NCBI GenBank assembly: GCA_030539395.1
Contig: JAUNSC010000027.1
Coordinates: 1 to 49,493, forward strand
Origin: Eubacteriales bacterium
GTDB lineage: Bacteria > Bacillota > Clostridia > Lachnospirales > Lachnospiraceae
Length of the DNA: 49,493 nt
Direction of reading: 5' to 3'
Position 1 is the stretch's first letter. The number at the start of each line of letters is the position of its first letter. A program made the position numbers and the translations under genes. Positions 25,746-41,731 of the stretch are shown piece after piece. A model generated the notes under the pieces. That model was not told the origin of the DNA. It was given only the letters and a program-made list of their open reading frames with translations, and did not search any database.

Positions 25746-25762
25746 ACGATTTTTCATGAAAA

Positions 25763-26662
25763 TCAGATACGGTAAATTGTATTATGCTGTTTTCGATATT
25801 CTGTCGGTGTGCAGCCATATTTATGCAAGAATATTTTGGAAAAATAGCTTAGATGGTTAAATCCGCAGGAAATGGCGATCTGCGCAATGCTGGACCTGGT
25901 ATTTGCCAGGAGATGGCAGCTGACTTTCAGACGGTATTCATTAGTAAAGTCTATAGGAGATTGCTGAAGGTATTTTTTAAAAATCTTGCAGCATTTACTT
26001 CTGCTAACATTTGCGGAAGCAGAAATCTCATCAAGTGTAAGGCTGTTTTGATAATGTTCGTATATGTAAGCCACCATCTTTTTTTGAAGGGCAATATCAT
26101 TGTAGCCCGGCGCAGAATTTTTGTTGAGCACAGGCCGGTACAGATTAAAAAAAATTTTCCACAGGCGGTATAGTGTACTGATGATTTCCAGTTCGTATCC
26201 GTCTTCCGGCCGGCCCTTTAAAAGATAAATCTGATTTACGAGTGATGCAACATGATCATAATCAGAAATCTGTGGAGTATATAGAATATACTCAATTGTT
26301 TCGCATTCTGTAAAAGGGCGGACATAATCGTTATAGATTTTTTTGTTTGCTGAAAGAAGGCCGGGATGAAACAGGATGCAGATAAAATGGCACTCATGAT
26401 GCAGATTGGAATAACCATAATGTAACTGGCGGGAATTAACTATGAGACAGTCTTTCTCCTGCAGTAAAATGGATTTGCCATTAATGTTGTAACGCATCTC
26501 GCCTTTTTGAATATAAATGATTTCAATGTCTTCATGCCAGTGGCAGAGCGCTTTCATATCCGGATATTTTGACAAAACTCTGCCCTGGATGTAAAGCGGA
26601 ATATCCGCCTGGTCATAATGGATGATTTCTGATGCGTCCTGCATCGTTTCTATATCTGCCAT
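25763..26662 (-). CDS. AraC-family transcriptional regulator
   Basis: A 299-residue regulator with an N-terminal cupin sensor (about 25-160, with HWHEDIEIIYIQKGEMRYNI region and LHYGYSN) and a C-terminal double helix-turn-helix (about 200-295; LDEISASANVSRSKCCKIFK, then SIAQIAISCGFNHLSYFSK). AraC proteins with such sensors usually activate sugar or efflux genes. It is transcribed away from the MATE gene at 26801 and shares its 138-base upstream region, so that pump is the likely target. GGAGG precedes its start on the minus strand. Confidence 0.9.
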   Translation of the reverse strand: MADIETMQDASEIIHYDQADIPLYIQGRVLSKYPDMKALCHWHEDIEIIYIQKGEMRYNINGKSILLQEKDCLIVNSRQLHYGYSNLHHECHFICILFHPGLLSANKKIYNDYVRPFTECETIEYILYTPQISDYDHVASLVNQIYLLKGRPEDGYELEIISTLYRLWKIFFNLYRPVLNKNSAPGYNDIALQKKMVAYIYEHYQNSLTLDEISASANVSRSKCCKIFKKYLQQSPIDFTNEYRLKVSCHLLANTRSSIAQIAISCGFNHLSYFSKIFLHKYGCTPTEYRKQHNTIYRI

Positions 26663-28818: not shown

Positions 28819-29202
28819 ATGGAAAAGAAATATGGTTTTCCGATTGAAACGATTGGGATGGCTTTTTCTGCCGGATATGGGTATGATGAAGACTGGTTTG
28901 ATCATACGATGGATACTATCTGGAATAATTACAGATATTTGAAAGAAGAATTAAATAAAAGGCTGCCGCAGGTTACTGTATATGTGCCGAAAGGAACCTG
29001 TCAGGTCTTTTTGGATTTGAGAGAACTTGTACCGGAAGATCAGGTTCAGGAATTTGTGCAGATAAAGTGTCATCTCCCCGTAGATTGCGGCGGTTGGTCC
29101 GGTGAAAATGATAAGGGATCTGTCAGAATAAATTTAGCAACAGGCCCTGCTTATATAAAAAACGCAGTGGAAACTTTGATTTTTGAAGCAAAGAGATTAT
29201 GA
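28819..29202 (+). pseudogene. C-terminal fragment of a PatB/MalY-type PLP aminotransferase
   Basis: 127 residues align by eye with only the final third of cystathionine beta-lyase/aminotransferases of the MalY/PatB type: YLKEELNKRLPQV, then VPKGTCQVFLDLRE, then SVRINLATGPAYIKNAVE. The PLP lysine and the whole N-terminal domain (about 260 residues) are missing, and the preceding bases encode the acetyltransferase, so the fragment cannot be an enzyme. An ATG and weak AAGGA site remain. Most likely the relic of a deletion fused at about 28815. Confidence 0.75.
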
Positions 29203-29220: not shown

Positions 29221-29252
29221 TCGGGATTCGAAATTTTCGAATCCCGATTTTT
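29221..29252. terminator. Bidirectional terminator, near copy of the hairpin at 15715
   Basis: Arms TCGGGATTCGAAA (29221-29233) and TTTCGAATCCCGA (29235-29247) with TTTTT after and AAAA before, so it can stop both the + strand fragment and the - strand LacI gene. The core GGGATTCGAA/TTCGAATCCC equals that at 15715-15741. Confidence 0.85.
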
Positions 29253-30342
29253 ATAGTACAGTATCGCTTTCTTCTTTTTTCTCTATGAAAAGTGGAACGG
29301 AGAAAATAGTATTATCATTGAATTGCGCGTTTTTTTGCGGTACAGAGGACTGCCGTATGATCAATTCCGTGTTATGCAAAATGTGCTGGGTGTATGCGAC
29401 TGGAGAGGCAATGTGTTCGTTTAGTATTTCTCCGGCAGTATATCCGATCTGAAAACGCGGCTGGCTGACAGTGGTGATAGACGGACTGCTGATTGTAGAA
29501 ATGTCTATGTTGTCAAATCCAACCACAACAAGATCGTCTGGAATGTTCAAATGATACTGCTGGGCTGCTTTTATGACGGCCGCTGCCACTAAATCAGAAG
29601 AGGCAAAAATCGCATCGGGCGGATTACTGGAGGTAAGCATTTGACAGGCGGATGCATATGCCATATCATAATTAATTTCGGCGAGACTGATACACCATCC
29701 GGGATATACATTAAGTCCGGACTGATGGATAAATGTATCATACCCTTTTTGACGTTCGGTTGAATACTTGTATGTAAGGGGACCATTGATAAATGCAATT
29801 TTTCGCCGCCCTTGTGAGTAGATGTGTTCCATTGCGCTAAATGCAGCTTTGTAATCATTGATACTAACATAAGAATATTCTTCTGAAGCATATTCGCAGC
29901 ATTGAACTAACGGTATTGATTCCCCGATTTGATGATACTGTTCTGGTTTGGATAAAGGGGAACAAAGAATGATGCCGTTAGTATGAAGAGATTTTGCAAA
30001 ACTCATAAAGGAACGGATTTCTTCATCGGTGCTTAAGGGCTCCTGACTGATCAGTGTTCTATATTTGTGATTCGAAGCAGAAGATTCAATACCTCGGATG
30101 ATTTCACTATAGAAGGGGTTGCTGATTTGAGGCACATTAACTAAGATCAATTTGGGGATACCTTTGTTTTTTTGCGCAGAAGAACGTTTAGGCACATAAT
30201 CCAGCTCTTTCATAGTGGAACGAACCAGTTCGATAGTTTTGCTGTTAACCAGTTCTGGATGGTTTAATACCCGGGAAACCGTGGCAGTTGAAATCCCGGC
30301 TTTTTCTGCAATAGTGAAAATGGAAATATTACTGTTCTTCAT
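29251..30342 (-). CDS. LacI-family repressor of the glycoside catabolic locus
   Basis: A 363-residue regulator with the LacI helix-turn-helix at the N-terminus (IFTIAEKAGISTATVSRVLNH, about 8-28 region) and hinge helix, then a periplasmic-binding-protein-like sensor (about 65-330; LVNVPQISNPFYSEIIRGI). AAGGAGG lies four bases before its ATG on the minus strand. It is divergent from the sugar ABC transporter and catabolic genes, and the shared 364-base region (30343-30706) holds repeated palindromes. It is therefore the probable local repressor; the inducer is presumably the imported glycoside or its sugar. Confidence 0.92.
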   Translation of the reverse strand: MKNSNISIFTIAEKAGISTATVSRVLNHPELVNSKTIELVRSTMKELDYVPKRSSAQKNKGIPKLILVNVPQISNPFYSEIIRGIESSASNHKYRTLISQEPLSTDEEIRSFMSFAKSLHTNGIILCSPLSKPEQYHQIGESIPLVQCCEYASEEYSYVSINDYKAAFSAMEHIYSQGRRKIAFINGPLTYKYSTERQKGYDTFIHQSGLNVYPGWCISLAEINYDMAYASACQMLTSSNPPDAIFASSDLVAAAVIKAAQQYHLNIPDDLVVVGFDNIDISTISSPSITTVSQPRFQIGYTAGEILNEHIASPVAYTQHILHNTELIIRQSSVPQKNAQFNDNTIFSVPLFIEKKEESDTVL

Positions 30343-30460
30343 GAGGCCTCCTTAAGACGTTTTTTCCTCAACTAATATTTATATCATACTATAAACCAAA
30401 AAAAAGAACAAGATATGATATAGTGAAGAGCTTTATATTAATTGTCATACTTAATTTAAC

Positions 30461-30525
30461 ATAAAATGAAAATTAATGCAAGATAAAATGAAAGTTTTCA
30501 TGAAAGTAAAATGAAAATAAATGCA
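30461..30525. repeat. Short direct repeat in the LacI/ABC intergenic region
   Basis: TAAAATGAAAATTAATGCA (30462-30480) recurs as TAAAATGAAAATAAATGCA (30507-30525), one base different, 45 bp apart. The upstream palindrome copy (30493-30507) lies between them. Possible regulatory repeats; role unknown. Confidence 0.5.
30493..30507. promoter_or_regulatory. Palindromic motif copy 1, candidate LacI-family operator
   Basis: AGTTTTCATGAAAGT, with perfect core TTTCATGAAA. The identical 15-mer recurs at 30655-30669. It overlaps ATGAAAGTTTTCAT (30488-30501), itself a 14-bp palindrome. Located about 90 bp upstream of the -35 box. Confidence 0.5.
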
Positions 30526-30593
30526 TTTTTCACAAAAATAGGATGTTATATTTGGGTAAAAGGTCTAAAAATTCCAATAATTGAATAAAAAAG

Positions 30594-30623
30594 TTGACAA
30601 AATAGCAAGAAAAGAGCTAAAAT
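30594..30623 (+). promoter_or_regulatory. Promoter of the sugar ABC/glycoside operon
   Basis: TTGACA (30594-30599), 18-bp spacer, TAAAAT (30618-30623). The inferred transcription start near 30630 puts palindrome copy 2 inside the early transcript, a classic repressor position. Confidence 0.7.
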
Positions 30624-30638
30624 GACTAATGTAAACAA

Positions 30639-30675
30639 GATGTAACTTACAAATAGTTTTCATGAAAGTTACATC
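30639..30675 (+). promoter_or_regulatory. Inverted repeat with nested operator copy 2 in the leader
   Basis: GATGTAACTT (30639-30648) and AAGTTACATC (30666-30675) are perfect 10-bp inverted repeats with a 17-base spacer containing most of AGTTTTCATGAAAGT (30655-30669). It could be a repressor site or an mRNA hairpin; the ribosome binding site (ACGGAGGG, about 30694-30701) lies outside. Confidence 0.5.
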
Positions 30676-30706
30676 AAAAAAAGATAAGAATGAACGGAGG
30701 GTAAAA

Positions 30707-31657
30707 ATGAAGAAGAGACAGGCAGTTACATTATTTACATTAGCAGCAGCAATGGCTATAGGGACAACAGCATTTGCTGAAGATGCAGCGGAAAAGAAAA
30801 CACTGAAAATCGGCATGGCGTGGGCGATTTTAGATGATGGACAGACAAATCTGACAAATGCAATCAAGAAGTGCTTTGATGAAAACTACCCGGATTACGA
30901 AATTGAATATACTCTGACAAATGCAGATGGTGACATTGCAACATTGTTAAATGATGTCGATGCACAGATCGCAAAGAATCCGGATATGATTTATATTATG
31001 AATTCGGTAGGCGATACAGGCGTTATTCCGGCAATTGAAGCCTGCGTGGAAGCAGAAATACCAGTAGGAATTGGTGTGGCAATTGGGGGAGAAGCACCGT
31101 ATACATATCTGTATGAGGGATTTAGCCAATATGCATGCGGACAGATGCAGGCTGAATACATGGATAGTATCTATGATGAGGCAGTAGAATATAAAGTGGC
31201 CTGCATTACCGGTGATGCGGGAAATGTTGCCGGTCAGGCCAGAACAGATGGCTTTAAAGAGAATTTTATTGATAAATATGACAATGTAGAACTTGTAATT
31301 GAAGGTGAAGGAAACTGGAATACAGATGATGCTCAAAGCCTGGCGGAAGACTGGCTGATCGCTCATCCGGAAATTAATATAATTGTATGTGTGAACGATG
31401 ATGAGGCTCAGGGTGTAATCAATGCCTGCGATGCAGCTGGAAGAGAAGATGTAATTATTCTGGGAATGGATGCCAGTGATGTGGGAAAAGGAAATGTGGA
31501 ATCTGGAGCTCAGGCAGCTTCCGTAGGAATTGATTTTGGCGGTGTAGCTTCTGCCTGTGCTGATGCGATGATAGAGTGCGCTGAAGGCAAGATGGAAGGA
31601 ACTGGCAATGAAGTTATGCTTACTACAGAAAACCTGTATACTTTAGCAAGAGAATAA
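30707..31657 (+). CDS. Sugar-binding protein of a ribose-type ABC importer
   Basis: A 316-residue extracellular binding protein of the RbsB-like family. It has a signal peptide (about 1-23, ending in AFA before EDAAEK) and no lipobox cysteine. The mature part is one periplasmic-binding-protein-1 fold starting LKIGMAWAILDD, with MDASDVG near 260 in the second lobe. ATG 30707 follows ACGGAGGG. In a Gram-positive cell a soluble binding protein without lipid anchor is odd; the signal helix may stay uncleaved as an anchor. It probably captures the glycoside or sugar handled by the downstream enzymes. The ligand is not readable. Confidence 0.9.
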   Translation: MKKRQAVTLFTLAAAMAIGTTAFAEDAAEKKTLKIGMAWAILDDGQTNLTNAIKKCFDENYPDYEIEYTLTNADGDIATLLNDVDAQIAKNPDMIYIMNSVGDTGVIPAIEACVEAEIPVGIGVAIGGEAPYTYLYEGFSQYACGQMQAEYMDSIYDEAVEYKVACITGDAGNVAGQARTDGFKENFIDKYDNVELVIEGEGNWNTDDAQSLAEDWLIAHPEINIIVCVNDDEAQGVINACDAAGREDVIILGMDASDVGKGNVESGAQAASVGIDFGGVASACADAMIECAEGKMEGTGNEVMLTTENLYTLARE

Positions 31658-31690
31658 TAGAAAACTTTTGATAAAGTGATAGCAGAAGTG

Positions 31691-31718
31691 AACCGGGGCT
31701 AAGAGATTAGCTCCGGTT
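31691..31718 (+). promoter_or_regulatory. Intra-operon hairpin after the binding-protein gene
   Basis: AACCGGGGCTAA (31691-31702), GAGA tetraloop, TTAGCTCCGGTT (31707-31718): a 12-bp stem with one G-U pair and a GNRA loop. No U-run follows, so it is more likely an mRNA-stabilising or partial attenuating element, allowing more binding protein than ATPase. Confidence 0.6.
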
Positions 31719-31766
31719 TCAAATAAAAAGAAACAATATGGAAGACTGTCATATGTGAGGAAAAAA

Positions 31767-33257
31767 ATGCAGGAAAGAAATGTACTTGAAATAACGGAAC
31801 TGTCAAAGAGCTTCCTTGGGGTAATGGCGCTGAACAAGGTGAAGCTTTCTGTACAGGCGGGAGAGGTTCATGCGGTTATTGGCGAAAATGGGGCCGGGAA
31901 AAGTACGATGATGAATATCATTATGGGCGATCTTAAGAGAGACGGAGGAAAGATTTTTTTAAAAGGAATGCCTGTAGAGTTCAGATCCCCCGCAGACGCG
32001 ATCACGGCTGGAATCTCTATGATTCATCAGGAAATCAGCCTTGTTCCTACGTTAACAGTGGCGGAGAATATATGGCTTCATAGAGAAGACCGGTTTATGA
32101 GAGGACCTTTTATTAATTATGCAGCGAGAAATGAAGCCACAGATGAACTGCTGATGAAAATGGGGATCCAAATTAAGTCTACAGCACTTGTGAGTGAACT
32201 TACGGTGGCTCAGGCCCAATTAGTGGAACTTGCCCGGGCAATTTCTTCAAATGCGGAAATTATTATTATGGATGAGCCAACATCTTCTTTATCAGACAAG
32301 GAGATATCGATATTGTTTCGTGTTATGCAGGATTTGCGGGACAAAGGCACGGCAATTATTTTTATCACACATAAAATAGAGGAATTGCTGACAATTTCGG
32401 ACAGGGTGTCTGTATATAGGGATGGATGTTATATTGGAACACGTAGATGCGCGGAAACAACAAAAGATGAGCTTATCAGCATGATTATAGGAAGGACTTT
32501 AACCGAACAATATCCCCGTATTGATACAAGAGAAGGAAGGCCGGTACTTGAGGTGAAAAATTTAAGTGGTACGTCTTATCGAGACATCAGCTTTACTGTA
32601 CATGAAGGAGAGATTATTGGTTTCTCAGGTTTGGTAGGCGCTGGGCGAAGCGAAATTATGAGGGGGATTTTTGGAATAGACAAAAAATTTGGCGGAGAAG
32701 TCTATATGAATGGAAATAAGGCAGAAATTCATTCGCCACGGGATGCTGTTCAGTATGGCATGGCTATGGTAACTGAGGACAGGCGGGATATGGGTATTAT
32801 CCAGACGGGCAGTGTAAAAGGAAATATGTCAATTTCAACGATTTCAAATTTTTGCAATAAACTGGGAATCGTCAATGATAAGAAAGAACAGCAGGCAGTA
32901 GAAGAAATGATACAGAAGCTGTCTGTTAAAGCGGCAAATATGAATATGCTGATCACATCTTTGTCCGGGGGAAACCAACAGAAAGCGATCATAGGAAGGT
33001 GGCTGATGACTGAGCCAAAGCTTTTGATACTGGATGAACCAACAAGGGGTATTGATGTGGGAGCAAAAGCAGAGATTTACCGGCTGATTGGAAAATTGGC
33101 AGAGCAGGGAATGGCAATCATTCTGGTTTCATCGGAGATGCCTGAAATATTAGGCATGAGCAGCAGGATATTTGTTGTGCGCGACGGCTCTATTGTATTT
33201 GAATGTAAAGCGGGCGAAGCGACCCAGGACTTGCTGGGAAAACATGCGCTTGGTTAA
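31767..33257 (+). CDS. Ribose-type sugar ABC importer ATP-binding protein (double ATPase)
   Basis: A 496-residue RbsA/MglA-like ATPase with two cassettes. The first has intact Walker A GENGAGKST and Walker B IIIMDEPTSSLS. The second has a degenerate Walker A GLVGAGRSE, signature LSGGNQQK and Walker B LLILDEPTRGID, as normal for this family. The first signature is unusual (LTVAQAQ in place of LSIGQ-type). ATG 31767 is six bases after GTGAGG; an upstream GTG at 31755 is less likely because it overlaps that site. It energises the permease encoded next. Confidence 0.92.
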   Translation: MQERNVLEITELSKSFLGVMALNKVKLSVQAGEVHAVIGENGAGKSTMMNIIMGDLKRDGGKIFLKGMPVEFRSPADAITAGISMIHQEISLVPTLTVAENIWLHREDRFMRGPFINYAARNEATDELLMKMGIQIKSTALVSELTVAQAQLVELARAISSNAEIIIMDEPTSSLSDKEISILFRVMQDLRDKGTAIIFITHKIEELLTISDRVSVYRDGCYIGTRRCAETTKDELISMIIGRTLTEQYPRIDTREGRPVLEVKNLSGTSYRDISFTVHEGEIIGFSGLVGAGRSEIMRGIFGIDKKFGGEVYMNGNKAEIHSPRDAVQYGMAMVTEDRRDMGIIQTGSVKGNMSISTISNFCNKLGIVNDKKEQQAVEEMIQKLSVKAANMNMLITSLSGGNQQKAIIGRWLMTEPKLLILDEPTRGIDVGAKAEIYRLIGKLAEQGMAIILVSSEMPEILGMSSRIFVVRDGSIVFECKAGEATQDLLGKHALG

Positions 33258-33270
33258 TGAGGGAAGGACA

Positions 33271-34266
33271 ATGAATAAAAAGAAAACATTTGACTCAGAA
33301 AAATTGATGCAGTTTTTCATGGATAACAAAGCAGTGATTATTCTTATTATCTTTGTTGCGATTGTGAGCTGCCTCACCAGTGACTTTTTTACTGCGAGAA
33401 ATATTTCTAATATTTTTCGTCAAATTTGTGCCAGCTGTGTATTGTCGCTGGGATTTACATTGGTATTAGGATCCGGGGCCATTGACCTGTCGGTTGGTTA
33501 CATGCTGGGAATGATTGGTATCGCCACTGCTTTGATGGCAGTAAATAATGTGCCGGCGCCGGTTGTAATCATAAGTGCTGTCCTGATTGGAGGATTTTGC
33601 GGATTTTTCAATGCATTTCTTACTTTGACTTTTGAATTGGCACCATTTATCGTGACGCTTGCAATGGGTATGGTCTACCAGGGAATAAATTTGCTGATGT
33701 GCCATTCAAAAAGTATAGCTAATTTGCCGGAATGGTATAAGTTTTTTGGAAATGGCAAAATTGGATCCGTTCCGTTTGCGATAGTTTTAATGCTGATAAT
33801 GGTTTTTGTTGTTATGGTTATGGTGCAGAAAACAAAATTTGGCAGATATGCACTGGCATGCGGGGGCAATCGAAAGGCTGCCAGGGTTTGCGGCATTTCT
33901 ACAGAGAAAATTACCTATACAGTATATATATTGACAGGCATATGTGTTGGAATAGCGGCACTTCTGTTGACCGGGCGTACTGCATCAGCACAGACTGGAG
34001 CAGGAGCGGGTATGGAGATGGACTGTGTTGCATCTGTTGTTATTGGCGGAACGCCGATGGAAGGCGGAAAAGTGAATGTATTTGGAACACTGGTAGGGTG
34101 CCTGCTGATTCAGGTAATTTCCAACTCACTTAATTTGCTGGGCGTGGATTCTAACTGGCAGAAGATTGCAAAGGGAGCGGTTATCATCATTGCGATTATT
34201 TTGGATCGTCAGGGATCAAAATTGCTGGAACGAATTCGGGTAAAGAAAGTACAGGCAGAGAATTAA
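33271..34266 (+). CDS. Ribose-type sugar ABC importer permease
   Basis: A 331-residue RbsC-like permease with about nine to ten membrane helices. Family segments are GSGAIDLSVGYMLG near 70 and ASVVIGGTPMEGGKVNVFGTL region near 255. ATG 33271 follows GAGGGAAGG and lies 13 bases after the ATPase stop; the longer frame overlaps that gene. Probably works as a homodimer with the preceding ATPase and binding protein. Confidence 0.92.
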   Translation: MNKKKTFDSEKLMQFFMDNKAVIILIIFVAIVSCLTSDFFTARNISNIFRQICASCVLSLGFTLVLGSGAIDLSVGYMLGMIGIATALMAVNNVPAPVVIISAVLIGGFCGFFNAFLTLTFELAPFIVTLAMGMVYQGINLLMCHSKSIANLPEWYKFFGNGKIGSVPFAIVLMLIMVFVVMVMVQKTKFGRYALACGGNRKAARVCGISTEKITYTVYILTGICVGIAALLLTGRTASAQTGAGAGMEMDCVASVVIGGTPMEGGKVNVFGTLVGCLLIQVISNSLNLLGVDSNWQKIAKGAVIIIAIILDRQGSKLLERIRVKKVQAEN

Positions 34267-34283
34267 AACGTGGAGGTTAAATA

Positions 34284-35168
34284 ATGGGAGTGATAAGAAA
34301 TTTGTTTCATGTTTCATTGCAGGCGCGTGAATGGGATAAAGCTCTGACATTTTATCGTGACGTGCTTGGATTTGAACAGATGTTTGAACTTAAGGTTGGG
34401 CAATTTAAAGATATGCTGCAGATGGGAGAGCATAATGAGGATGATGATAATCACTGGCTGACATATCTTAGAGTTGCTCCGGATGAGTATATAGAGATGT
34501 TTAATGCGGTTATCAACCCGCCGGAATTCAAGACGGAACCATTGGGGTGTCATGAGGATACAGTTTTGGAATCATTTGCACTTGGGTGTGAAAATCTGGA
34601 AAAAACTGTGGAAGGATTAAAAGACAGGGGCATTGAAATAACAGATGGGTACATTGTTGATCCGTCTGGTGTAAAAATTCGTATTGTAGAGAGAAGCGGC
34701 CATGCATCGGTAAAAGAACGCCTGTTTACTTCTCTGGCCGGCATTTCTCTTTATGTGAATGATTTGGATATCATGACGAACCATCTGAAAGCAATGTGTT
34801 TTGAACTGAAAGATAAGACTTCTGACAGAGCATTATTCACGGTTGGTGAGTTTGGGCAGTATGTGGAACTGATTCAGGCCGGGGAGCAGGTTAAAGTATA
34901 TGATGATGATCTTCTGGGACATTTTGCTCTTCGGATTTATAAGGTGACGGATACGGTGAAAGCATGGGGTGCAAATGGGGTACATTGCTGTCCGCAGCCG
35001 TTTATGAAAGAAGTAAAGGTTCCGTCTGATGATACTGCAAAAGGAAATGTGGGATTGGATGGCTGTGAAATCATCTGGATGGTCTGCCCGGAGGGAAATA
35101 AGATTGAAGTTATGGTAGAGCCCGGCAATACAATGCAGCAGGAATATGAGCGGACACATGTATATTGA
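34284..35168 (+). CDS. Two-module VOC-superfamily (glyoxalase/extradiol dioxygenase-like) protein
   Basis: A 294-residue cytoplasmic protein with two vicinal-oxygen-chelate modules. Module 1 (about 4-135) has His9 in LFHVSL and Glu in EYIEMFN; module 2 (about 147-280) has QYVELIQ, GHFALRI and KIEVMVE. These His/Glu positions are typical metal ligands. The two-module layout resembles catechol 2,3-dioxygenases, but an oxygen-dependent ring cleavage is improbable in a strict anaerobe; an isomerase, epimerase, lyase or aglycone-handling role is more likely. It lies 17 bases after the permease and opens the enzyme part of the operon. Substrate unknown. Confidence 0.8.
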   Translation: MGVIRNLFHVSLQAREWDKALTFYRDVLGFEQMFELKVGQFKDMLQMGEHNEDDDNHWLTYLRVAPDEYIEMFNAVINPPEFKTEPLGCHEDTVLESFALGCENLEKTVEGLKDRGIEITDGYIVDPSGVKIRIVERSGHASVKERLFTSLAGISLYVNDLDIMTNHLKAMCFELKDKTSDRALFTVGEFGQYVELIQAGEQVKVYDDDLLGHFALRIYKVTDTVKAWGANGVHCCPQPFMKEVKVPSDDTAKGNVGLDGCEIIWMVCPEGNKIEVMVEPGNTMQQEYERTHVY

Positions 35169-35244
35169 TTTGGATTGGCATTTTAGTATATTTCCGGAGG
35201 AGACAACTGCCTGACATGGAATGAAAGAGAGGACAATACGTTAA

Positions 35245-36384
35245 ATGAAAGAATTAAGAGCAGCTGTTATTGGCGTTGGATTTATTGGTGCCGTGCATAT
35301 TGAGACGATCCGCAGGTTGGGAAATGTAAAGATCGTTGCCTTATGTGATGCAAACGGCGCGAAGAAAAAAGCAGAGCAGCTTCATATTGACAAAGCATAT
35401 ACTGATTTTAAAAAGATGATAGATGAATGTGAATTGGATGCAATTCATATTTGTACACCTAATTTTACACATTATGAAATTGCAAAGTATGCAATCGAAC
35501 ATGGAGTGAATTTTATTTGTGAAAAGCCATTTACTACAACAGTAGAGCAGGCCAGAGAATTGATTGTGCTGTCAAAGGAAAAGAATGTGACTGGAGCTGT
35601 GAATTTTCATAATCGGTTATATCCCATCACAAATGAAATGCATCAACTAATCCGGGAAAATGAGATTGGTGATATATTTTCAGTTCATGGTGAATATATA
35701 CAGGACTGGCTTCTCTATGACACGGATTACAGTTGGCGTCTTGAGAAGAACCAGGTTGGAAAAACCAGAGCAATTGCGGATATTGGTTCACACTGGATGG
35801 ATTTGGCTGAGTTTGTTACATGCATGAAAGTGAAACGGGTGAATGCAAAGTTCAGAACTGTTTATCCAGTCCGCAAAAAACCAGTGGGGCAGATAAATAC
35901 ATTTGAGCATAGCACAGAGGAACAGCAGTATGAAAATATGGCGATAGACACCGAGGATGAAGCGGTGGTTATGTTTGAATTTGAGAATGGCGCTATTGGA
36001 AGCATGATGATTTCCATGGTTTTCGCCGGGAGAAAGAATACAATTACTTTAAGTGTAGCTGGAAGTAAAAAGGCGCTGAAATGGGATTCGGAGGATTCGA
36101 ATAATCTTTGGGTCGGGTATCGTGACAGAGCCAATGAAAGCCTGACTAAAGATGCTTTTTTACTGCATGACCGCGCTTCGCGTTTAGGCTCGTATCCGTC
36201 CGGACATGTGGAAGGATTCGGTGATGCATTTAAAAATGTATTTCGGCAGTTTTATGATAGTTTGCTGATGCCTGAAGGAGAGTATGAATATGCAAAAATG
36301 GAAGATGGATTAAGAGAAATGCTGCTTTGCGATGCGGTATTTGAAAGCGCCCAGAGCGAAAAATGGGTAGAGGTTCAGGAGTAA
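35245..36384 (+). CDS. Gfo/Idh/MocA-family sugar oxidoreductase (candidate glycoside 3-oxidase)
   Basis: A 379-residue NAD(P)-dependent dehydrogenase. The Rossmann motif is GVGFIG (10-15), the conserved EKP is at 93-95, and the catalytic segment ADIGSHWMD holds Asp179 and His183. In gut C-glycoside degradation an enzyme of this family (DgpA in the puerarin pathway) oxidises the C3 hydroxyl of the glucosyl group, which makes the C-C bond cleavable. Because the deglycosidase subunits lie two genes downstream, that reaction is the leading hypothesis here. Inositol or other sugar dehydrogenase activity is the alternative. GAGAGGA lies upstream of the start. Confidence 0.88.
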   Translation: MKELRAAVIGVGFIGAVHIETIRRLGNVKIVALCDANGAKKKAEQLHIDKAYTDFKKMIDECELDAIHICTPNFTHYEIAKYAIEHGVNFICEKPFTTTVEQARELIVLSKEKNVTGAVNFHNRLYPITNEMHQLIRENEIGDIFSVHGEYIQDWLLYDTDYSWRLEKNQVGKTRAIADIGSHWMDLAEFVTCMKVKRVNAKFRTVYPVRKKPVGQINTFEHSTEEQQYENMAIDTEDEAVVMFEFENGAIGSMMISMVFAGRKNTITLSVAGSKKALKWDSEDSNNLWVGYRDRANESLTKDAFLLHDRASRLGSYPSGHVEGFGDAFKNVFRQFYDSLLMPEGEYEYAKMEDGLREMLLCDAVFESAQSEKWVEVQE

Positions 36385-36407
36385 GGCCTGACCGGAAAGG
36401 AATATGT

Positions 36408-37340
36408 ATGAAATTAGGATTTATTACTTCTATCCTGCAGGATGAGAGTTTTGAAGAAACGATTGATTTTGCGGCAAAACACGGGTTTTCATGTGTTGAA
36501 ATGGCATGCTGGCCCAAAGGGAAGGCAGAGAGAAGATATGCGGGGGTAACACATATAGATGTTGATGATCTGAATGATGAAAAAGCAGCATACATACAGA
36601 ATTACTGTCGGGAAAGAAACGTAGAAATTTCTTCTCTGGCATTTTACCCCAATACTCTGGATCCTGATCCTGAAAAGCGCGAAGCGGTTGTCGGACATTT
36701 GCTGAAAGTAATCCGTGCCTCTGCGAAGCTGAAAGTTGGGATGGTTACAACTTTTATCGGAAGAGTGGAAAATGCATCGGTTGAGGAAAACCTGAAAGTA
36801 GTTCAGCAGGTATGGCCACAGATTCTGAAAACTGCAAAAGAATGCGGCGTAAGAATCGCAATAGAGAATTGTCCGATGCTGTTTGGCCCGGAACAATGGC
36901 CGGGTGGACAGAATCTTTTTACAAGCCCTGAAAACTGGAAAAAAATATTTGATATTCTTCCGGATGAAAATTTGGGAATTAACTATGATCCTTCTCATTT
37001 TGTATGGCAAATGATGGATTATATCCAGCCGATATATGATTTTAAAGACAAAATTTTTCACGTTCATATAAAAGATATTAAACTTTATCCGGAAAAACTG
37101 CAGCGCGTGGGAACTATGGCATATCCGCTGGAGTATATGTCTCCAAAGCTTCCCGGGCTGGGAGATGTAAACTGGGGAAAATATATCAGTGCACTGACAG
37201 ATATCGGATATGACGGATATGTCTGCCTCGAAATAGAGGACAAGGCTTTTGAGAAGACAAAAAAGGATGTCTATACATCTCTTCTGCAGTCAAAAAGATA
37301 TATCGAAAATTATTTAATGGATTTTTCAGCTGCTTTATAA
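36408..37340 (+). CDS. TIM-barrel sugar isomerase/epimerase-like protein 1
   Basis: A 310-residue xylose-isomerase-like TIM barrel. Candidate metal ligands follow the family Glu-Asp-His-Glu pattern: Glu153 in AIENCP, Asp194 in NYDPSH, His220 in HVHIKD and Glu275 in LEIED. Enzymes of this fold isomerise or epimerise ketosugars, or hydrate/eliminate 3-oxo-glycosides. ATG 36408 follows AAAGGAA and lies 23 bases after the oxidoreductase gene. A role on the 3-oxo intermediate or on the released sugar is inferred. Confidence 0.85.
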   Translation: MKLGFITSILQDESFEETIDFAAKHGFSCVEMACWPKGKAERRYAGVTHIDVDDLNDEKAAYIQNYCRERNVEISSLAFYPNTLDPDPEKREAVVGHLLKVIRASAKLKVGMVTTFIGRVENASVEENLKVVQQVWPQILKTAKECGVRIAIENCPMLFGPEQWPGGQNLFTSPENWKKIFDILPDENLGINYDPSHFVWQMMDYIQPIYDFKDKIFHVHIKDIKLYPEKLQRVGTMAYPLEYMSPKLPGLGDVNWGKYISALTDIGYDGYVCLEIEDKAFEKTKKDVYTSLLQSKRYIENYLMDFSAAL

Positions 37341-37397
37341 AAAATAAAAGTCATAGGATAATAAGAAGTTCTGTGCGTTTAAAAAGGAGGAAAAGAC

Positions 37398-37826
37398 ATG
37401 TTTATGACACAGTTTGCCCAGTGGGATAAGTATATGTTATGTGATGCGCCAATTTGTAATGTAAAGGCAGGGGATGTTGTATACGGATATGAATTTAAAA
37501 TTCATTATCCGACTTACCGGGGAACATATTTAAGCTGCATTGAAGAGCTGTATTTTGAATTGGATGGAAAGCGAATCCCGAATGAAACAGTACAGTTTCG
37601 GTTAAATGGAAAGCAGTTTCTGCTGTCAGAACTTGAAAATTTGTTCCAGGAATACTGGTGGATTCGTGATGATGCAGTCATTCGTGTAGTAGACTTGGAA
37701 GGATTAGAAAAGGGCAGTGTTCATTCGGTTCATGTACATATGCAGCATCGCATTCCATATACCGGATATGAAGGAGAATACGGTGTTGAAATTTCCGATT
37801 GCACAAAAGAATTGGTTGTGGAATAA
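37398..37826 (+). CDS. C-glycoside deglycosidase beta subunit (DUF6379 family)
   Basis: A 142-residue beta-sandwich protein. I recognise the family of small subunits of C-glycoside deglycosidases from GYEFKIHYPTYRGTYLS (about 34-50), the following IEELYFELDGKRIP, the FRLNGKQF segment and the WW dipeptide near 92. In the characterised enzymes the small subunit packs on a TIM-barrel large subunit and is needed to cleave the C-C bond of 3-oxo-C-glycosides such as 3''-oxo-puerarin. The gene for a matching large subunit begins 17 bases later, with GGAGG before each. The ~20 residues at the N-terminus differ from my memory of known members, so the aglycone may differ. Family recognition is from memory, not a search. 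Confidence 0.8.
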   Translation: MFMTQFAQWDKYMLCDAPICNVKAGDVVYGYEFKIHYPTYRGTYLSCIEELYFELDGKRIPNETVQFRLNGKQFLLSELENLFQEYWWIRDDAVIRVVDLEGLEKGSVHSVHVHMQHRIPYTGYEGEYGVEISDCTKELVVE

Positions 37827-37843
37827 GAGGAGGACAAAAAGAT

Positions 37844-38800
37844 ATGGCGAAAGATATAAAAATTGGTTGTACAATATATAGCTTTAGTTATTTTTATGAT
37901 CTCAGGCTTATGGATTTGGAAGAGATTCTTAGAAAAACACATGAGATGGGATATGAAGGGATTGAAATTGTTGCAGCCCAAATGACACCGGAATATCCAA
38001 ATGTTTCGGATGAATGGATTGCAGAATTTAAAGGTCTGTTAGATAAATATAATCTGCATCTTGTTTCCTGGAGTGCTTATGTGGATATGGGAATTCATAA
38101 AGACCGGGATTTGACAGATGAAGAGATTATTGAGCATACAACGCGTGATATGATTATTGCAAAAAAACTTGGGGCAGATCTGGTACGTACACAGCATGCG
38201 ATTGGTCCCAAAAACTTTAGGGCTATGCTTCCGGTTTGCAAAAAATTAGGTGTAAAACTTTGTGTAGAAATGCATGCACCGCACCATCCTCGTGTTCCGG
38301 TGTGGAAAGAACTGTTGAAAATAATGGCAGAGCCGGAAAGTGAAGGATATCTGGGCGTAGTTCCGGACTTCTCAATTTTTCAGTATGAACCGCATCCACA
38401 GATGATTGATAATTACATCCACGGCGGCTTTCGAAAAGAAAAACTGGATAAAGTAGTAGAATTGAATACTGCCAGAAAAACTGTAGAAGAAATTTTGGCT
38501 GCAGATGAGTTTACAGAGTATGAAAAAACGGTAATAGAGGACATTGTGGATCACTATCAGCCTCAGACGTTTTTGGAAGATTTGAAGCAATTGATTCCAT
38601 TGTCACCCTATATTCATGGAAAGTTCCATTACCTCGACGAAAATAATCATAATCCGAGTATTCCGTATGAGGAGATTATTCCTGAAGTGCAGAAATTAGG
38701 TTTTCATGGTTATATTGCAAGCGAGTATGAGGGGTGGGACGAGGCGTGCATTGAACAGTTGCAGCGATATGTGAAATTGCTTGACAGTTTGATTAGTTGA
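37844..38800 (+). CDS. C-glycoside deglycosidase alpha subunit (TIM-barrel, probable metal-dependent lyase)
   Basis: A 318-residue TIM barrel of the sugar isomerase superfamily. Candidate metal ligands are Glu142 in VEMHAPHHP, Asp175 in VPDFS, His262 in KFHYLDE and Glu294 in ASEYEGW. The HAPHHP stretch and the KFHYLDE segment resemble large subunits of C-glycoside deglycosidases more than ordinary sugar isomerases. With the beta subunit encoded 17 bases upstream it should form the complex that breaks the C-C bond of a 3-oxo-C-glycoside, releasing aglycone and an oxidised or dehydrated sugar. AGAGGAGG precedes ATG 37844. Function is inferred from the pair; substrate unknown. Confidence 0.78.
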   Translation: MAKDIKIGCTIYSFSYFYDLRLMDLEEILRKTHEMGYEGIEIVAAQMTPEYPNVSDEWIAEFKGLLDKYNLHLVSWSAYVDMGIHKDRDLTDEEIIEHTTRDMIIAKKLGADLVRTQHAIGPKNFRAMLPVCKKLGVKLCVEMHAPHHPRVPVWKELLKIMAEPESEGYLGVVPDFSIFQYEPHPQMIDNYIHGGFRKEKLDKVVELNTARKTVEEILAADEFTEYEKTVIEDIVDHYQPQTFLEDLKQLIPLSPYIHGKFHYLDENNHNPSIPYEEIIPEVQKLGFHGYIASEYEGWDEACIEQLQRYVKLLDSLIS

Positions 38801-38810
38801 GGGGAAATTT

Positions 38811-40484
38811 ATGAAAGAGTGGACACAGATTTGGGCCAAACCACGTTCAATTACAGATCCTGAAGGTAACTATAATGGATTTAACCCGTCAGTTACCACA
38901 TTGAAAGCGGGATATTGCCACCCGAAAGGAAATATTCCTCTTAACTGTGACGTGATTTGGGAACGTGATAACGCAGTAGTACTGCGGGATGGAACAACTA
39001 TTTACACGGATATTTATCGCCCTGCAGTGCAGGAAAAAGTGCCGGTGGTGATTTCCTGGAGTCCCTACGGGAAATCTAATATAGATCTGCCATGGGCTTA
39101 TGATGAGGGAGATTTGTCACACCTGCAAAAAGAAGAAGGCGTTGATCCGGCTTTTTGGTGTGCCGGTGGATATGCAGTAGCTCATCCGGATGCAAGGGGA
39201 GCTTATATGTCAGGCGGAAATATTTATCATTGGGGAACGAATGAAGGTCGGGATATTTATGACTATATCGAGTGGCTGGCGAAACAGGAATGGTGCAATG
39301 GCTCAGTAGGAATGGCGGGAAATTCATATCTGACGATAGCCCAGTGGTTTGCAGCGGATCAGAAACCTCCCCATTTAAAAGCGATCGCACCATGGGAAGG
39401 GCAGACAGATGCGTATCGGGAAGTGATACTTAGAGGGGGGATTGTGGATAATGCATTTCCCAGGCAGGCCATTTCTGTAATGCACGGTAATCATTATGTA
39501 GATGATATGGCTTCCATGGCTGATGAATATCAGATGATGAATAGTTATTGGGAAAATAAGCGTGCGGTGTTAAAAGAGATTGAAATACCTGCTTATATTG
39601 TGGCAAGCTATACAAATCCGATCCATACTCAGGGAACGTTCCGGGCATATCGGGAGTTATCTTCTAAAGAAAAATGGCTCAGGATTCATAATTCCACAGA
39701 ATGGGTGGATTTTTACCGGCCCCAAAATCAAAAAGACCTGATGACGTTTTTTGATTATTATCTGAAGGGGATTGAAAATGGATGGGAGAAGACACCGGCT
39801 GTAAGATATGCGGTTCTTAATCCTGGTGGAGAGGATGCAGTTGATCTGATAGATGAGGTTTTCCCACCTGTGGGTACTCAGTATCAAAAATTGTATCTGA
39901 ATTGTGAAAGTATGAAATTAACAGAGATTATTGGAAGAGAAACTTCTGCATCATATAGTGGGGGTGATGCTTCAGCAGAAATATTATTTCGATATACATT
40001 TCAAAGGGATACAGATATTATCGGTTATCCGGATATCTGCCTGTTTGTAGAGGCGGAGGGGACAAACGATATGGATATTTTTGTTGAGATCGGAAAAGAG
40101 GGAGAGCCTGGGCGGTTCCTGGCTTGGGACTGCAAACCACATAATCGGTATTTCCAGCCTTTCCCGGCGTATGAAGGCCGCTTGAGGGTATCTATGAGAG
40201 CATTGGATCAGGAAAAGACAAAAGATCATTTGCCGGTGCACAGTTTTGAAAAAGCAGAATATTTGGAAGAAAACGTGCCCGTGAAAGTAAATATTTCGAT
40301 TCGTCCCATGGGATTGAGGTTTCGGGCCGGTGAGACACTGCTTCTTCGAATCGGAAATGAGCAGAGCGATGTGCTTGCAGGCGGAAGAAAGCTGGGCAGA
40401 GCAAACAACGGAGGAATACATAGAATTCATGCAGGAAAAAATATGCCGTCATATTTGGAGCTGCCATTCAGGGAGGTACTATGA
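38811..40484 (+). CDS. CocE/NonD-family serine hydrolase
   Basis: A 557-residue hydrolase with an alpha/beta-hydrolase domain (about 45-340) and a C-terminal PepX_C-like beta sandwich (about 350-555). The nucleophile is Ser172 in GMAGNSYL, the family GxxGxSYxG-like elbow, and DARGAYMSGG (127-136) forms the oxyanion side. No signal peptide, so cytoplasmic. Family members hydrolyse esters, amides or Xaa-Pro peptides. Within this operon it may remove acyl groups from an acylated glycoside or aglycone before or after deglycosylation; that is context only. It starts ten bases after the alpha-subunit gene and overlaps the next by ATGA. Confidence 0.88.
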   Translation: MKEWTQIWAKPRSITDPEGNYNGFNPSVTTLKAGYCHPKGNIPLNCDVIWERDNAVVLRDGTTIYTDIYRPAVQEKVPVVISWSPYGKSNIDLPWAYDEGDLSHLQKEEGVDPAFWCAGGYAVAHPDARGAYMSGGNIYHWGTNEGRDIYDYIEWLAKQEWCNGSVGMAGNSYLTIAQWFAADQKPPHLKAIAPWEGQTDAYREVILRGGIVDNAFPRQAISVMHGNHYVDDMASMADEYQMMNSYWENKRAVLKEIEIPAYIVASYTNPIHTQGTFRAYRELSSKEKWLRIHNSTEWVDFYRPQNQKDLMTFFDYYLKGIENGWEKTPAVRYAVLNPGGEDAVDLIDEVFPPVGTQYQKLYLNCESMKLTEIIGRETSASYSGGDASAEILFRYTFQRDTDIIGYPDICLFVEAEGTNDMDIFVEIGKEGEPGRFLAWDCKPHNRYFQPFPAYEGRLRVSMRALDQEKTKDHLPVHSFEKAEYLEENVPVKVNISIRPMGLRFRAGETLLLRIGNEQSDVLAGGRKLGRANNGGIHRIHAGKNMPSYLELPFREVL

Positions 40485-41272
40485 AAGAAAAAAAACTGAA
40501 GTATTCCATTTGTATCGATGCTGTTTTTATGCATGAGAAAATCTCTTTTGCGGAAGCGATGAAAAAGGTTGCTGATCTGGGATTTGAAGCGGTAGAGTTC
40601 TGGTCCTGGTGGGATAAAGATATCGTACAGATCAGAAAATGTATGGATAAAACAGGATTGAAAATAGCGGCGTTTTGTACAAAGTTTATCAATCCGGGAG
40701 AAGAGTTTCTCCGGGAAGAGTATTTAAAAGGAGTCAGGGAAAGCATTGCGGCTGCCAGACGGTTGAATTGCAATACACTTATTGCTCAGGCCGGCTGGGA
40801 ATTTGACAGTTTCTCAAAAGGAATAACAAAGGCGAAGCATCGAGAATCTTTGATTGAAACCATGAAGCGTGCAGGTGAATTGGCAGTTTCAGAAAATGTA
40901 AATCTTGTAATTGAACCACTGAATCTTCTGGTAAATCATCCGGGATATCATTTATCAACATCTGAGGATGCATTTAATCTGGTTTCTCAAATTGACTGTC
41001 CGAATGTGAAAATATTATTTGATATTTATCATCAGCAGATTACAGAAGGAAACCTGATTCGAAATATTATTCCGAATATTGAAAAAATCGGACATTTTCA
41101 TGCAGCGGGCAATCCGGGAAGAGGAGAACTTGCAGAGGGGGAGATCCATTATCCCAATGTGCTGAAATCTATTGCCAAATGTGGGTATAAGGGCTATATC
41201 GGGCTGGAATATATGACTGCCGAAGATCCTGTGCCGGGATTGGAGAGAGCTGTCAGAGACATACTGGTCTGA
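40481..41272 (+). CDS. TIM-barrel isomerase-like protein 3 (hydroxypyruvate isomerase type)
   Basis: A 263-residue TIM barrel closest in look to hydroxypyruvate isomerase. Likely metal ligands are Glu145 in VIEPLN, Asp181 in LFDIYHQQ, His207 in GHFHAAGNPGRGE and Glu243 in GLEYMT. The loop GNPGRGELAEGEIHY corresponds to the conserved PGR-x-E-x-x-x-GE-I-x-Y of that family. ATGA overlap couples it to the CocE gene. It may isomerise the sugar product freed by the deglycosidase or a C3 fragment. Confidence 0.85.
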   Translation: MKEKKLKYSICIDAVFMHEKISFAEAMKKVADLGFEAVEFWSWWDKDIVQIRKCMDKTGLKIAAFCTKFINPGEEFLREEYLKGVRESIAAARRLNCNTLIAQAGWEFDSFSKGITKAKHRESLIETMKRAGELAVSENVNLVIEPLNLLVNHPGYHLSTSEDAFNLVSQIDCPNVKILFDIYHQQITEGNLIRNIIPNIEKIGHFHAAGNPGRGELAEGEIHYPNVLKSIAKCGYKGYIGLEYMTAEDPVPGLERAVRDILV

Positions 41273-41323
41273 CAACTGTTTTGTAAGGCAGCAGAACAAG
41301 AGAGAAAGAGAAGAAAAAAGAAT

Positions 41324-41731
41324 ATGAGAATGGTGAGTGATGATCCTGTTTTCAGCAATGGGATTGATATCAGGCTTTTAGGCATTGATTTGCAGAAAGT
41401 GGAAGAGAAAGATCCGGATTGCCTGTGGATAGCGGGAAACTATTGGCAGTGTTATCCTGTCCTTGAAGATAGCATTTCAGAAAAGCCGATTGATGTGGTA
41501 ATTGTTAATTATATGAGAAAAACACCGACAGGAAGAGAGCACCGAATTCGATTTTATGCTGGTTTAGCTGTAAAAGATGGAAAGCTGGTGAGAACAGGAT
41601 TACCGGATAATGCTCTTTCTGAGGAATATGCAAAATGTCATATGCGTCATTTGATGTTAGAATATGGAAATGAAGCTCGTATGGTAAATGAGTTTTGGGA
41701 CAGATACGCGAAAAAGCTTTACGTAAAATAG
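41324..41731 (+). CDS. Unrecognised 135-residue protein, last gene of the glycoside operon
   Basis: No family recognised. The protein is soluble, mixed alpha/beta by eye: a beta-rich first half (PIDVVIVNYMRKT, HRIRFYAGLAVKDGKLV) and a helical, charged C-terminus (EEYAKCHMRHLMLEYGNEAR region). The only cysteines are Cys33, Cys43 and Cys105. It ends the locus just before a terminator and has a purine-rich but weak Shine-Dalgarno. Its size is like the deglycosidase beta subunit but it lacks the FKIHYPTYRG-type motif, so I do not call it a second beta subunit. It could be an accessory subunit of the preceding TIM barrel. Confidence 0.7.
   Translation: MRMVSDDPVFSNGIDIRLLGIDLQKVEEKDPDCLWIAGNYWQCYPVLEDSISEKPIDVVIVNYMRKTPTGREHRIRFYAGLAVKDGKLVRTGLPDNALSEEYAKCHMRHLMLEYGNEARMVNEFWDRYAKKLYVK

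What the first reader, a model, noticed from the sequence alone, without database searches (positions are those of the whole stretch)
29251..41731. LacI-controlled locus that may import and cleave a plant C-glycoside
Seen: divergent LacI repressor, ribose-type ABC importer, two-module VOC protein, Gfo/Idh/MocA oxidoreductase, three TIM-barrel isomerases, a DUF6379-type beta subunit beside its TIM-barrel alpha subunit, a CocE hydrolase and an unknown protein, all co-oriented from one promoter to one terminator. Known: gut C-glycoside degradation (puerarin, Dgp proteins) uses a Gfo/Idh/MocA 3-oxidase and an alpha/beta deglycosidase. Inference: this is an expanded version with its own importer, acyl hydrolase and sugar-processing isomerases, possibly for an acylated or otherwise unusual C-glycoside.
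Basis: partly seen in the sequence, partly recalled or inferred. Interest (0 to 1): 0.9.

Follow-up and report, generated by a model that had tools for sequence, protein, structure and literature searches.

The report
C-glycoside-cleaving operon with second C–C hydrolase
This gut-bacterial gene cluster very probably imports a plant compound whose sugar is joined by a carbon-carbon bond and strips the sugar off; in a close relative the same cluster also carries a second carbon-carbon-cutting enzyme, of which only a broken piece is left here.

Summary
The 142-aa protein is a CGDB (PF19906) beta subunit (E 1.7e-30) next to a DgpC/PuCGD-type alpha subunit (E 1e-55) that keeps the published metal ligands, the catalytic His and, in beta, Tyr39. 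Two exact copies of a 15-bp palindrome, found nowhere else in the genome, flank the promoter, and a strong terminator closes the operon.

Three corrections. (1) The "unknown protein" is the C-terminal remnant of a PF18089 (phloretin/DAPG hydrolase-type) C–C hydrolase; a relative of the same genus keeps the full-length gene at that place. (2) One "isomerase" belongs to a group that tracks CGD genes across the family (23 of 34 CGD genomes against 27 of 363 others) and best fits the hydratase that handles the eliminated sugar. (3) The Gfo/Idh/MocA enzyme is nearer to levoglucosan dehydrogenase than to DgpA.

PF18089 recurs near CGD genes in a few independent loci. I read the pathway as adapted to C-glucosides of acylphloroglucinols (for example nothofagin or iriflophenone C-glucosides, possibly galloylated): one enzyme set removes the sugar, another the acyl group, from one ring. 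Substrate and activities are inferred, not shown. It is a new variant of the known dgp/dfg/car kind.

The parts
29251..30342 (-). LacI-family repressor, divergent
   Evidence: Pfam LacI + Peripla_BP_3; 61-86% identical orthologues at the same place in L002, L003, L004, L155
30493..30507 (.). upstream operator copy AGTTTTCATGAAAGT
   Evidence: exact only here and at 30655 in the assembly; core TTTCATGAAA twice in the same intergenic region of L002, L003 and L155, not in L004
30594..30623 (+). sigma-70-like promoter TTGACA-18-TAAAAT
   Evidence: 11 of 12 consensus
30655..30669 (.). second operator copy, between -10 and start codon
   Evidence: sequence
30707..31657 (+). sugar-binding protein of the importer
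   Evidence: PF13407 1.8e-34
31767..33257 (+). importer ATPase, ribose type
   Evidence: ABC_tran; nearest NCBIfam RbsA, below cut-off
33271..34266 (+). importer permease
   Evidence: PF02653 4.8e-38; nearest NCBIfam ribose permease, below cut-off
34284..35168 (+). VOC-superfamily protein of 294 aa, role unknown
   Evidence: Glyoxalase 4e-8; H9, E71, H213, E275 invariant in a five-row alignment with L002, L155 and two single-domain VOC proteins of L157
35245..36384 (+). Gfo/Idh/MocA dehydrogenase, putative glycoside 3-oxidase and 3-keto-glucose reductase
   Evidence: PF01408 9e-28; PDB 4h3v 1e-40, 6a3f 2e-39, DgpA 1e-17; NF052479 levoglucosan DH 8e-54, below its cut-off
36408..37340 (+). TIM1, putative 2-hydroxy-3-keto-glucal hydratase
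   Evidence: PDB 2zds 1e-12, AtHYD 8ro4 9e-7; same two top a low-confidence model comparison; genome co-occurrence with CGDB
37398..37826 (+). C-glycoside deglycosidase beta subunit (CGDB, DUF6379)
   Evidence: PF19906 1.7e-30; 9m3a_B 1e-17, DgpB 7bvr_B 3e-15; Tyr39-beta equivalent kept
37844..38800 (+). C-glycoside deglycosidase alpha subunit (TIM barrel)
   Evidence: PuCGD alpha 7bvr_A 1.2e-55; metal ligands and His143 equivalent kept
38811..40484 (+). CocE/NonD (S15) hydrolase, putative acyl esterase
   Evidence: TIGR00976 198 bits against 66.3; PDB 3ib3 9e-89, cocaine esterase 1e-17
40481..41272 (+). TIM3, hydroxypyruvate/2-oxo-tetronate-isomerase-like
   Evidence: NCBIfam 148 bits, below cut-off; PDB 3ngf 2e-23, 3-keto-D-glucoside 4-epimerase 6wn6 3e-14
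41324..41731 (+). C-terminal remnant (135 aa) of a PF18089 phloretin/DAPG-hydrolase-type gene
   Evidence: PF18089 profile positions 148-220 of 223; full-length orthologue L002:13581-14510, 79% identical over 131 aa
41737..41794 (+). intrinsic terminator
   Evidence: fold -26 kcal/mol, z -5.2, U-rich tail

Best explanation
A LacI-controlled catabolic operon of a gut bacterium (family inferred as Lachnospiraceae from kin) for a plant C-glucoside. Inferred course: the ribose-type ABC importer takes up the glycoside; the CocE hydrolase removes an acyl (for example galloyl) ester; the Gfo/Idh/MocA enzyme oxidises the sugar at C3 with NAD; the Mn-dependent alpha/beta eliminase cuts the C-C bond of the 3-keto glucoside, releasing the aglycone and 2-hydroxy-3-keto-glucal; TIM1 hydrates that to 3-keto-glucose, which the same dehydrogenase could reduce to glucose, so that NAD is recycled. 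In relatives a PF18089 hydrolase then splits the acyl group from the released phloroglucinol ring; in this genome only its C-terminal 135 residues remain, so that step is lost here or done by another protein. Shown by sequence: the gene set, family memberships, conserved residues, operator-like pair, terminator, truncation, recurrence. Inferred: every reaction, the order, the substrate.
Against: No activity or substrate is known. Two residues named in PuCGE modelling differ (Asn144 to Ala, Tyr303 to Trp). PuCGE also cleaves a 3-keto O-glucoside, so the gene set does not exclude O-glycosides. In the window the PF18089 gene is broken, and the otherwise orthologous L155 operon shows none in the stretch fetched. 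In one search only 6 of 75 CGD stretches (4 distinct loci) match the PF18089 queries; by a rough count the family-wide co-location within 10 kb (2 beside the window, or 3 with the G339 copy that one search missed, against 0.67 expected) is not or only marginally significant (Poisson 0.15 or 0.03). TIM1 also occurs in 27 genomes without CGDB, and its AlphaFold model is weak (pLDDT 64), with many TIM barrels close in Z. The Gfo enzyme is far from DgpA.
Confidence: 0.62

Rival explanations
1. Same C-glycoside chemistry, but for an ordinary flavone, isoflavone or xanthone C-glucoside; the PF18089 gene is an accidental or occasional neighbour that degrades dihydrochalcones from elsewhere.
For: No PF18089 match in the L155 operon or in 69 of the 75 CGD stretches, and the gene is broken in the window; family-wide co-location is not or only marginally significant; known CGDs act on flavone, isoflavone, xanthone and anthraquinone C-glucosides (PMC8563793).
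Against: Full-length PF18089 sits as last operon gene in L002, inside a differently built CGD cluster in L157 and directly behind TIM1 in L075, on separate alpha branches. The four loci where I found a close copy (window, L002/G005, L157/G339, L074/G351) all lie within 10 kb of CGDB.
Confidence: 0.27
2. A 3-keto-O-glycoside beta-elimination operon (for example phlorizin or levoglucosan-like substrates), with beta kept for binding.
For: Gfo closest to levoglucosan dehydrogenase-like proteins; PuCGE cleaves 3-keto-phlorizin; TIM1 also in 27 genomes without CGDB.
Against: CGDB present with the Tyr39 equivalent that is specific to C-C cleavage; characterised O-eliminase AtOGE lacks the second subunit.
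Confidence: 0.15
3. Inositol, rhizopine or other sugar catabolism with borrowed TIM barrels.
For: IolE-like and IolG-like profile neighbours and ribose-type importer.
Against: Those NCBIfam scores are far below cut-offs (IolE 41.9 of 290, IolG 111.7 of 355), whereas CGDB is far above its own.
Confidence: 0.04

Closest known systems
dgp cluster of Dorea-like strain PUE (DgpA, DgpB-DgpC = PuCGD)
   Same: CGDB beta plus TIM-barrel alpha with the same metal site and a Gfo/Idh/MocA oxidoreductase
   Different: Gfo is not a DgpA orthologue; here LacI, ribose-type importer, VOC, CocE, TIM1, TIM3 and a PF18089 remnant. The PUE cluster also carries transporters and accessory genes of unclear role (PMC8398226 passages); I had no PUE cluster sequence, so gene-by-gene synteny was not compared
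Agrobacterium AtOGE/AtHYD operon and Bacillus smithii levoglucosan operon (PMC10628242)
   Same: oxidation, elimination, hydration, reduction logic; TIM1 resembles AtHYD, Gfo resembles levoglucosan dehydrogenase
   Different: eliminase here is the CGDB-type alpha/beta complex, not AtOGE
Phloretin hydrolase (5xey/5xe5) and PhlG (3hwp)
   Different: about 20% identity, own subfamily, placed in a CGD operon; window copy lacks about 162 of the 295 residues of P0047 at its N-terminal side
Catenibacillus scindens/decagia dgpBC clusters and phy (PMC11170127, abstract and passages seen)
   Same: Lachnospiraceae with several dgpBC clusters and a phloretin hydrolase in one genome
   Different: no linkage of phy to dgpBC is mentioned in the passages I saw

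Membership tests
C-glycoside deglycosidase (CGD/CGE) alpha/beta complex | beta subunit of the CGDB/DUF6379 family | tested here: met
   PF19906 105.6 bits, cut-off 27.6; DgpB 3e-15
C-glycoside deglycosidase (CGD/CGE) alpha/beta complex | adjacent TIM-barrel alpha homologous to PuCGD alpha | tested here: met
   7bvr_A 1.2e-55; 17 bases between the genes
C-glycoside deglycosidase (CGD/CGE) alpha/beta complex | metal ligands (2 Glu, Asp, His, Lys) and catalytic His143 | tested here: met
   all six positions identical
C-glycoside deglycosidase (CGD/CGE) alpha/beta complex | Tyr39 of beta, needed for C-C cleavage | tested here: met
   TYRG in the query; Y in 36 of 44 homologues
C-glycoside deglycosidase (CGD/CGE) alpha/beta complex | Asn144 and Tyr303 of PuCGE | tested here: inconclusive
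   Ala and Trp here; whether they are obligatory is not established in what I read
C-glycoside deglycosidase (CGD/CGE) alpha/beta complex | aglycone release from a 3-keto C-glycoside | not testable with these tools
   needs an assay
DgpA-type glycoside 3-oxidase | closest solved relative is a DgpA | tested here: not met
   DgpA 7xr9 E 1e-17 against 4h3v 1e-40 and 6a3f 2e-39; no tree was made
Levoglucosan dehydrogenase | NCBIfam equivalog cut-off | tested here: not met
   182.7 of 650 bits
2-hydroxy-3-keto-glucal hydratase (AtHYD) | closest to AtHYD among solved structures | tested here: inconclusive
Phloretin/DAPG hydrolase (PF18089) | full-length domain in the window | tested here: not met
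   only profile positions 148-220 of 223; 135 aa against 295 in P0047
Phloretin/DAPG hydrolase (PF18089) | fold and profile in the full-length relative | tested here: met
Phloretin/DAPG hydrolase (PF18089) | zinc ligands (two His, two Glu; recalled from the PhlG/Phy literature) | tested here: inconclusive
   H144, E154, H271 and E275 invariant in the 19 rows of A2; H144 column aligns with 5xey H123; geometry not inspected

The most novel reading that the evidence does not exclude
The operon type is a dedicated anaerobic pathway for (acylated) C-glucosyl acylphloroglucinols, such as nothofagin or galloylated iriflophenone C-glucosides: it removes both carbon-linked substituents, the glucose by a CGD eliminase and the acyl chain by a PF18089 hydrolase, from the same phloroglucinol ring, with an esterase clearing the sugar first. 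The window strain has lost the second C-C hydrolase of the operon and would release the acylphloroglucinol intact.
Probability: 0.42. Interest if true: 0.7.

Novelty: new variant of a known kind. Interest (0 to 1): 0.55.

Why it matters
Which gut and herbivore bacteria degrade C-glycosides, and which gene set fits which aglycone, is largely open; accessory genes of the dgp cluster are described as of unclear function (PMC8398226 passage). The comparison gives testable assignments: a sugar-side enzyme (TIM1) that stays alike across CGD loci, and aglycone-side partners (PF18089, CocE, VOC) restricted to some alpha branches. It also gives a concrete substrate class and a natural loss case.

Tried and rejected
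Considered and set aside. O-glycoside or inositol pathways: see rivals. PF18089 as a family-wide partner of CGDB: rough count, 0.67 pairs within 10 kb expected without the window genome; 2 seen in the lists (G321, G351; Poisson 0.15), 3 with G339 (0.03). One search scored only the 7 best candidates per genome and so missed the G339 copy beside CGDB, which I found through the matching contig length 27311 and confirmed. One search scored only 5 candidates per genome, so TIM1 counts may be low. dN/dS on the truncated ORF against L002 was useless: no dS value for 7 of 9 genes; identity of the fragment (77%) is like that of TIM3 (74%), so there is no sign of fast decay. Fragment ORF alone against PDB: best E 0.57. 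VOC: only one weak PDB hit, 0.0013. Own-genome operator scan with 2 mismatches gave 18 sites against 28 for the reversed control pattern, so only the two exact sites mean anything. Protein search with the fragment found 2 proteins, itself and P0002; P0002 alone has no Pfam match. NCBIfam has no match for the beta subunit, the fragment or the L002 PF18089 protein. Synteny with the published PUE, orientin or carminic-acid clusters was not compared, because their sequences are not in the collections I could search by name. Literature searches with no direct answer: (PMC12724307) held none of the six terms. In some searches I saw listings and abstract starts only, except for papers then opened. 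None of the listings or passages I saw joins a CGD operon with a phloretin-hydrolase-type gene; most subscription papers are not held.

Data handling. TIM1 of L165 was used for its 16-row list. The tree used 66 rows; long rows such as L159 and L100 are unsure. In one search the ABC gene was started one codon late.
Full report
WHAT IS THERE. One divergent LacI gene faces a run of eleven co-oriented genes from 30707 to 41731. Between them lies a TTGACA-18-TAAAAT promoter flanked by two exact copies of AGTTTTCATGAAAGT, at 30493-30507 and 30655-30669; no other exact copy exists in the 3.37-Mb assembly. The palindromic core TTTCATGAAA stands 3 times in the window against 0.17 expected (the third copy, at 25752, is outside the locus), and recurs twice in the corresponding intergenic regions of L002, L003 and L155, though not in L004. 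That is good evidence for a LacI operator pair. Behind the last ORF a hairpin of -26 kcal/mol (z -5.2, 0 of 200 shuffles as good) followed by a U-rich tail closes the unit.

THE ELIMINASE. The 142-residue protein scores 105.6 bits against PF19906, C-glycoside deglycosidase beta subunit (cut-off 27.6), and matches solved beta subunits 9m3a_B (1e-17) and DgpB (3e-15). The gene 17 bases further on matches PuCGD alpha at 1.2e-55. The metal ligands named for AgCGD2 in PMC8563793 (passages seen) and the catalytic His143 of PuCGE (PMC10628242, passages seen) are all kept: PuCGD E141, H143, D173, H263, K265 and E299 against E157, H159, D190, H273, K275 and E309 of the ORF that starts at 37799 (first three counted by eye, the others by script). 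Asn144 and Tyr303 are Ala and Trp here. Tyr39 of beta, whose change to Phe costs nearly all C-glucoside but little O-glucoside activity, is kept; in 44 aligned homologues the column is Y in 36, W in 6, E in 1 and a gap in 1.

THE OXIDOREDUCTASE. It is nearest to 4h3v and 6a3f (1e-40, 2e-39), with DgpA at 1e-17, and scores 182.7 bits on the levoglucosan dehydrogenase model, below that model's cut-off of 650. Levoglucosan operons are described as analogous in logic, so C3 oxidation is plausible but not shown.

RECURRENCE. 75 stretches around CGD genes were compared with the window proteins. L155 (G214) has the operon at 61-77% identity per protein but no PF18089 match in the stretch, and its TIM3 homologue (47%) lies behind LacI. 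L157 (G339) is built differently: importer, CocE, a fused CGDB-TIM protein of 474 aa, two single VOC genes, a PF18089 gene identical to P0060 over 296 residues, and a divergent LacI; no Gfo or TIM1 match was seen there. L075 (G321) has LacI, beta, alpha, importer, Gfo, TIM1 and PF18089 in a row. L074 (G351) has PF18089 about 9 kb from its CGD genes with two opposed genes between. In the alpha tree of 66 rows the window joins L002, L003, L004 and L155 (100/100), with L157 and L012 as sister group (97/87), L075 on another branch, and L074 in a distant part. Strong matches (E below 1e-50) to the PF18089 subfamily profile A2 were the window and G005 among 394 genomes and the window and G351 among 331; with G339, whose copy is in A2 itself, these four loci all lie within 10 kb of CGDB. 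Against this, 69 of the 75 CGD stretches show no PF18089 match, and a rough family-wide count is not or only marginally significant (0.67 pairs expected, 2 or 3 seen; Poisson 0.15 or 0.03). CocE is near 6 of 9 CGD stretches with beta identity of 45% or more and 4 of 56 others (Fisher 1.8e-4; rows dropped are listed under Tried and rejected).

SUBSTRATE. PuCGE releases phloretin from 3-keto-nothofagin, a dihydrochalcone C-glucoside, and phloretin hydrolase splits phloretin into phloroglucinol and an acid (PMC8398226 passage). Iriflophenone 3-C-glucosides with 2-O-galloyl and 2,6-di-O-galloyl groups were tentatively identified in mango leaf (PMC9312095, passages and table seen). An acylphloroglucinol C-glucoside, possibly galloylated, would give work to CGD, PF18089 and CocE at once. 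This is inference. The VOC and TIM3 steps are unassigned.

VERDICT. A real and well conserved C-glycoside-type operon, a new variant of a known kind. Its most interesting feature is the second C-C hydrolase, which the window strain has lost.

Noticed in passing
L074, L075, L105, L108, L131, L140, L152 and others: Proteins of about 800 residues that resemble two cupin/AraC-HTH/GH39-like (PF01229) proteins of L074 and L075 match within 33 of the 75 CGD stretches (L165 repeats L074; L125 matches only the first 281 residues; Pfam was run on three of them): perhaps a recurrent regulator type of CGD loci.
   Followed up: partly
window 28819-29202: 127-aa ORF matching only positions 272-379 of 384 of PatB C-S lyase (TIGR04350, 1.3e-13): probably a second gene remnant beside the locus.
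   Followed up: partly
G000:C60:62701-65060 (L073:10669-13256, minus strand): Two full-length PF18089 genes with a short-chain dehydrogenase gene between them in the window's own genome; a similar pair of A2-profile matches is in G002 and G006 of the same genus. They might stand in for the lost hydrolase.
   Followed up: partly
window 25749-25763: Palindrome ATTTTTCATGAAAAT, two changes from the LacI operator, between the converging ends of a MATE gene and an AraC-type gene, so probably not an operator.
   Followed up: no
L157:8668-10095: Natural fusion of CGDB and the TIM-barrel alpha subunit in one 474-aa protein, in the same order as the solved 435-aa chain 8qrz.
   Followed up: no
L157:2351-4992: Two further AP_endonuc_2 proteins and a SnoaL-like protein on the far side of LacI in the L157 cluster.
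   Followed up: no
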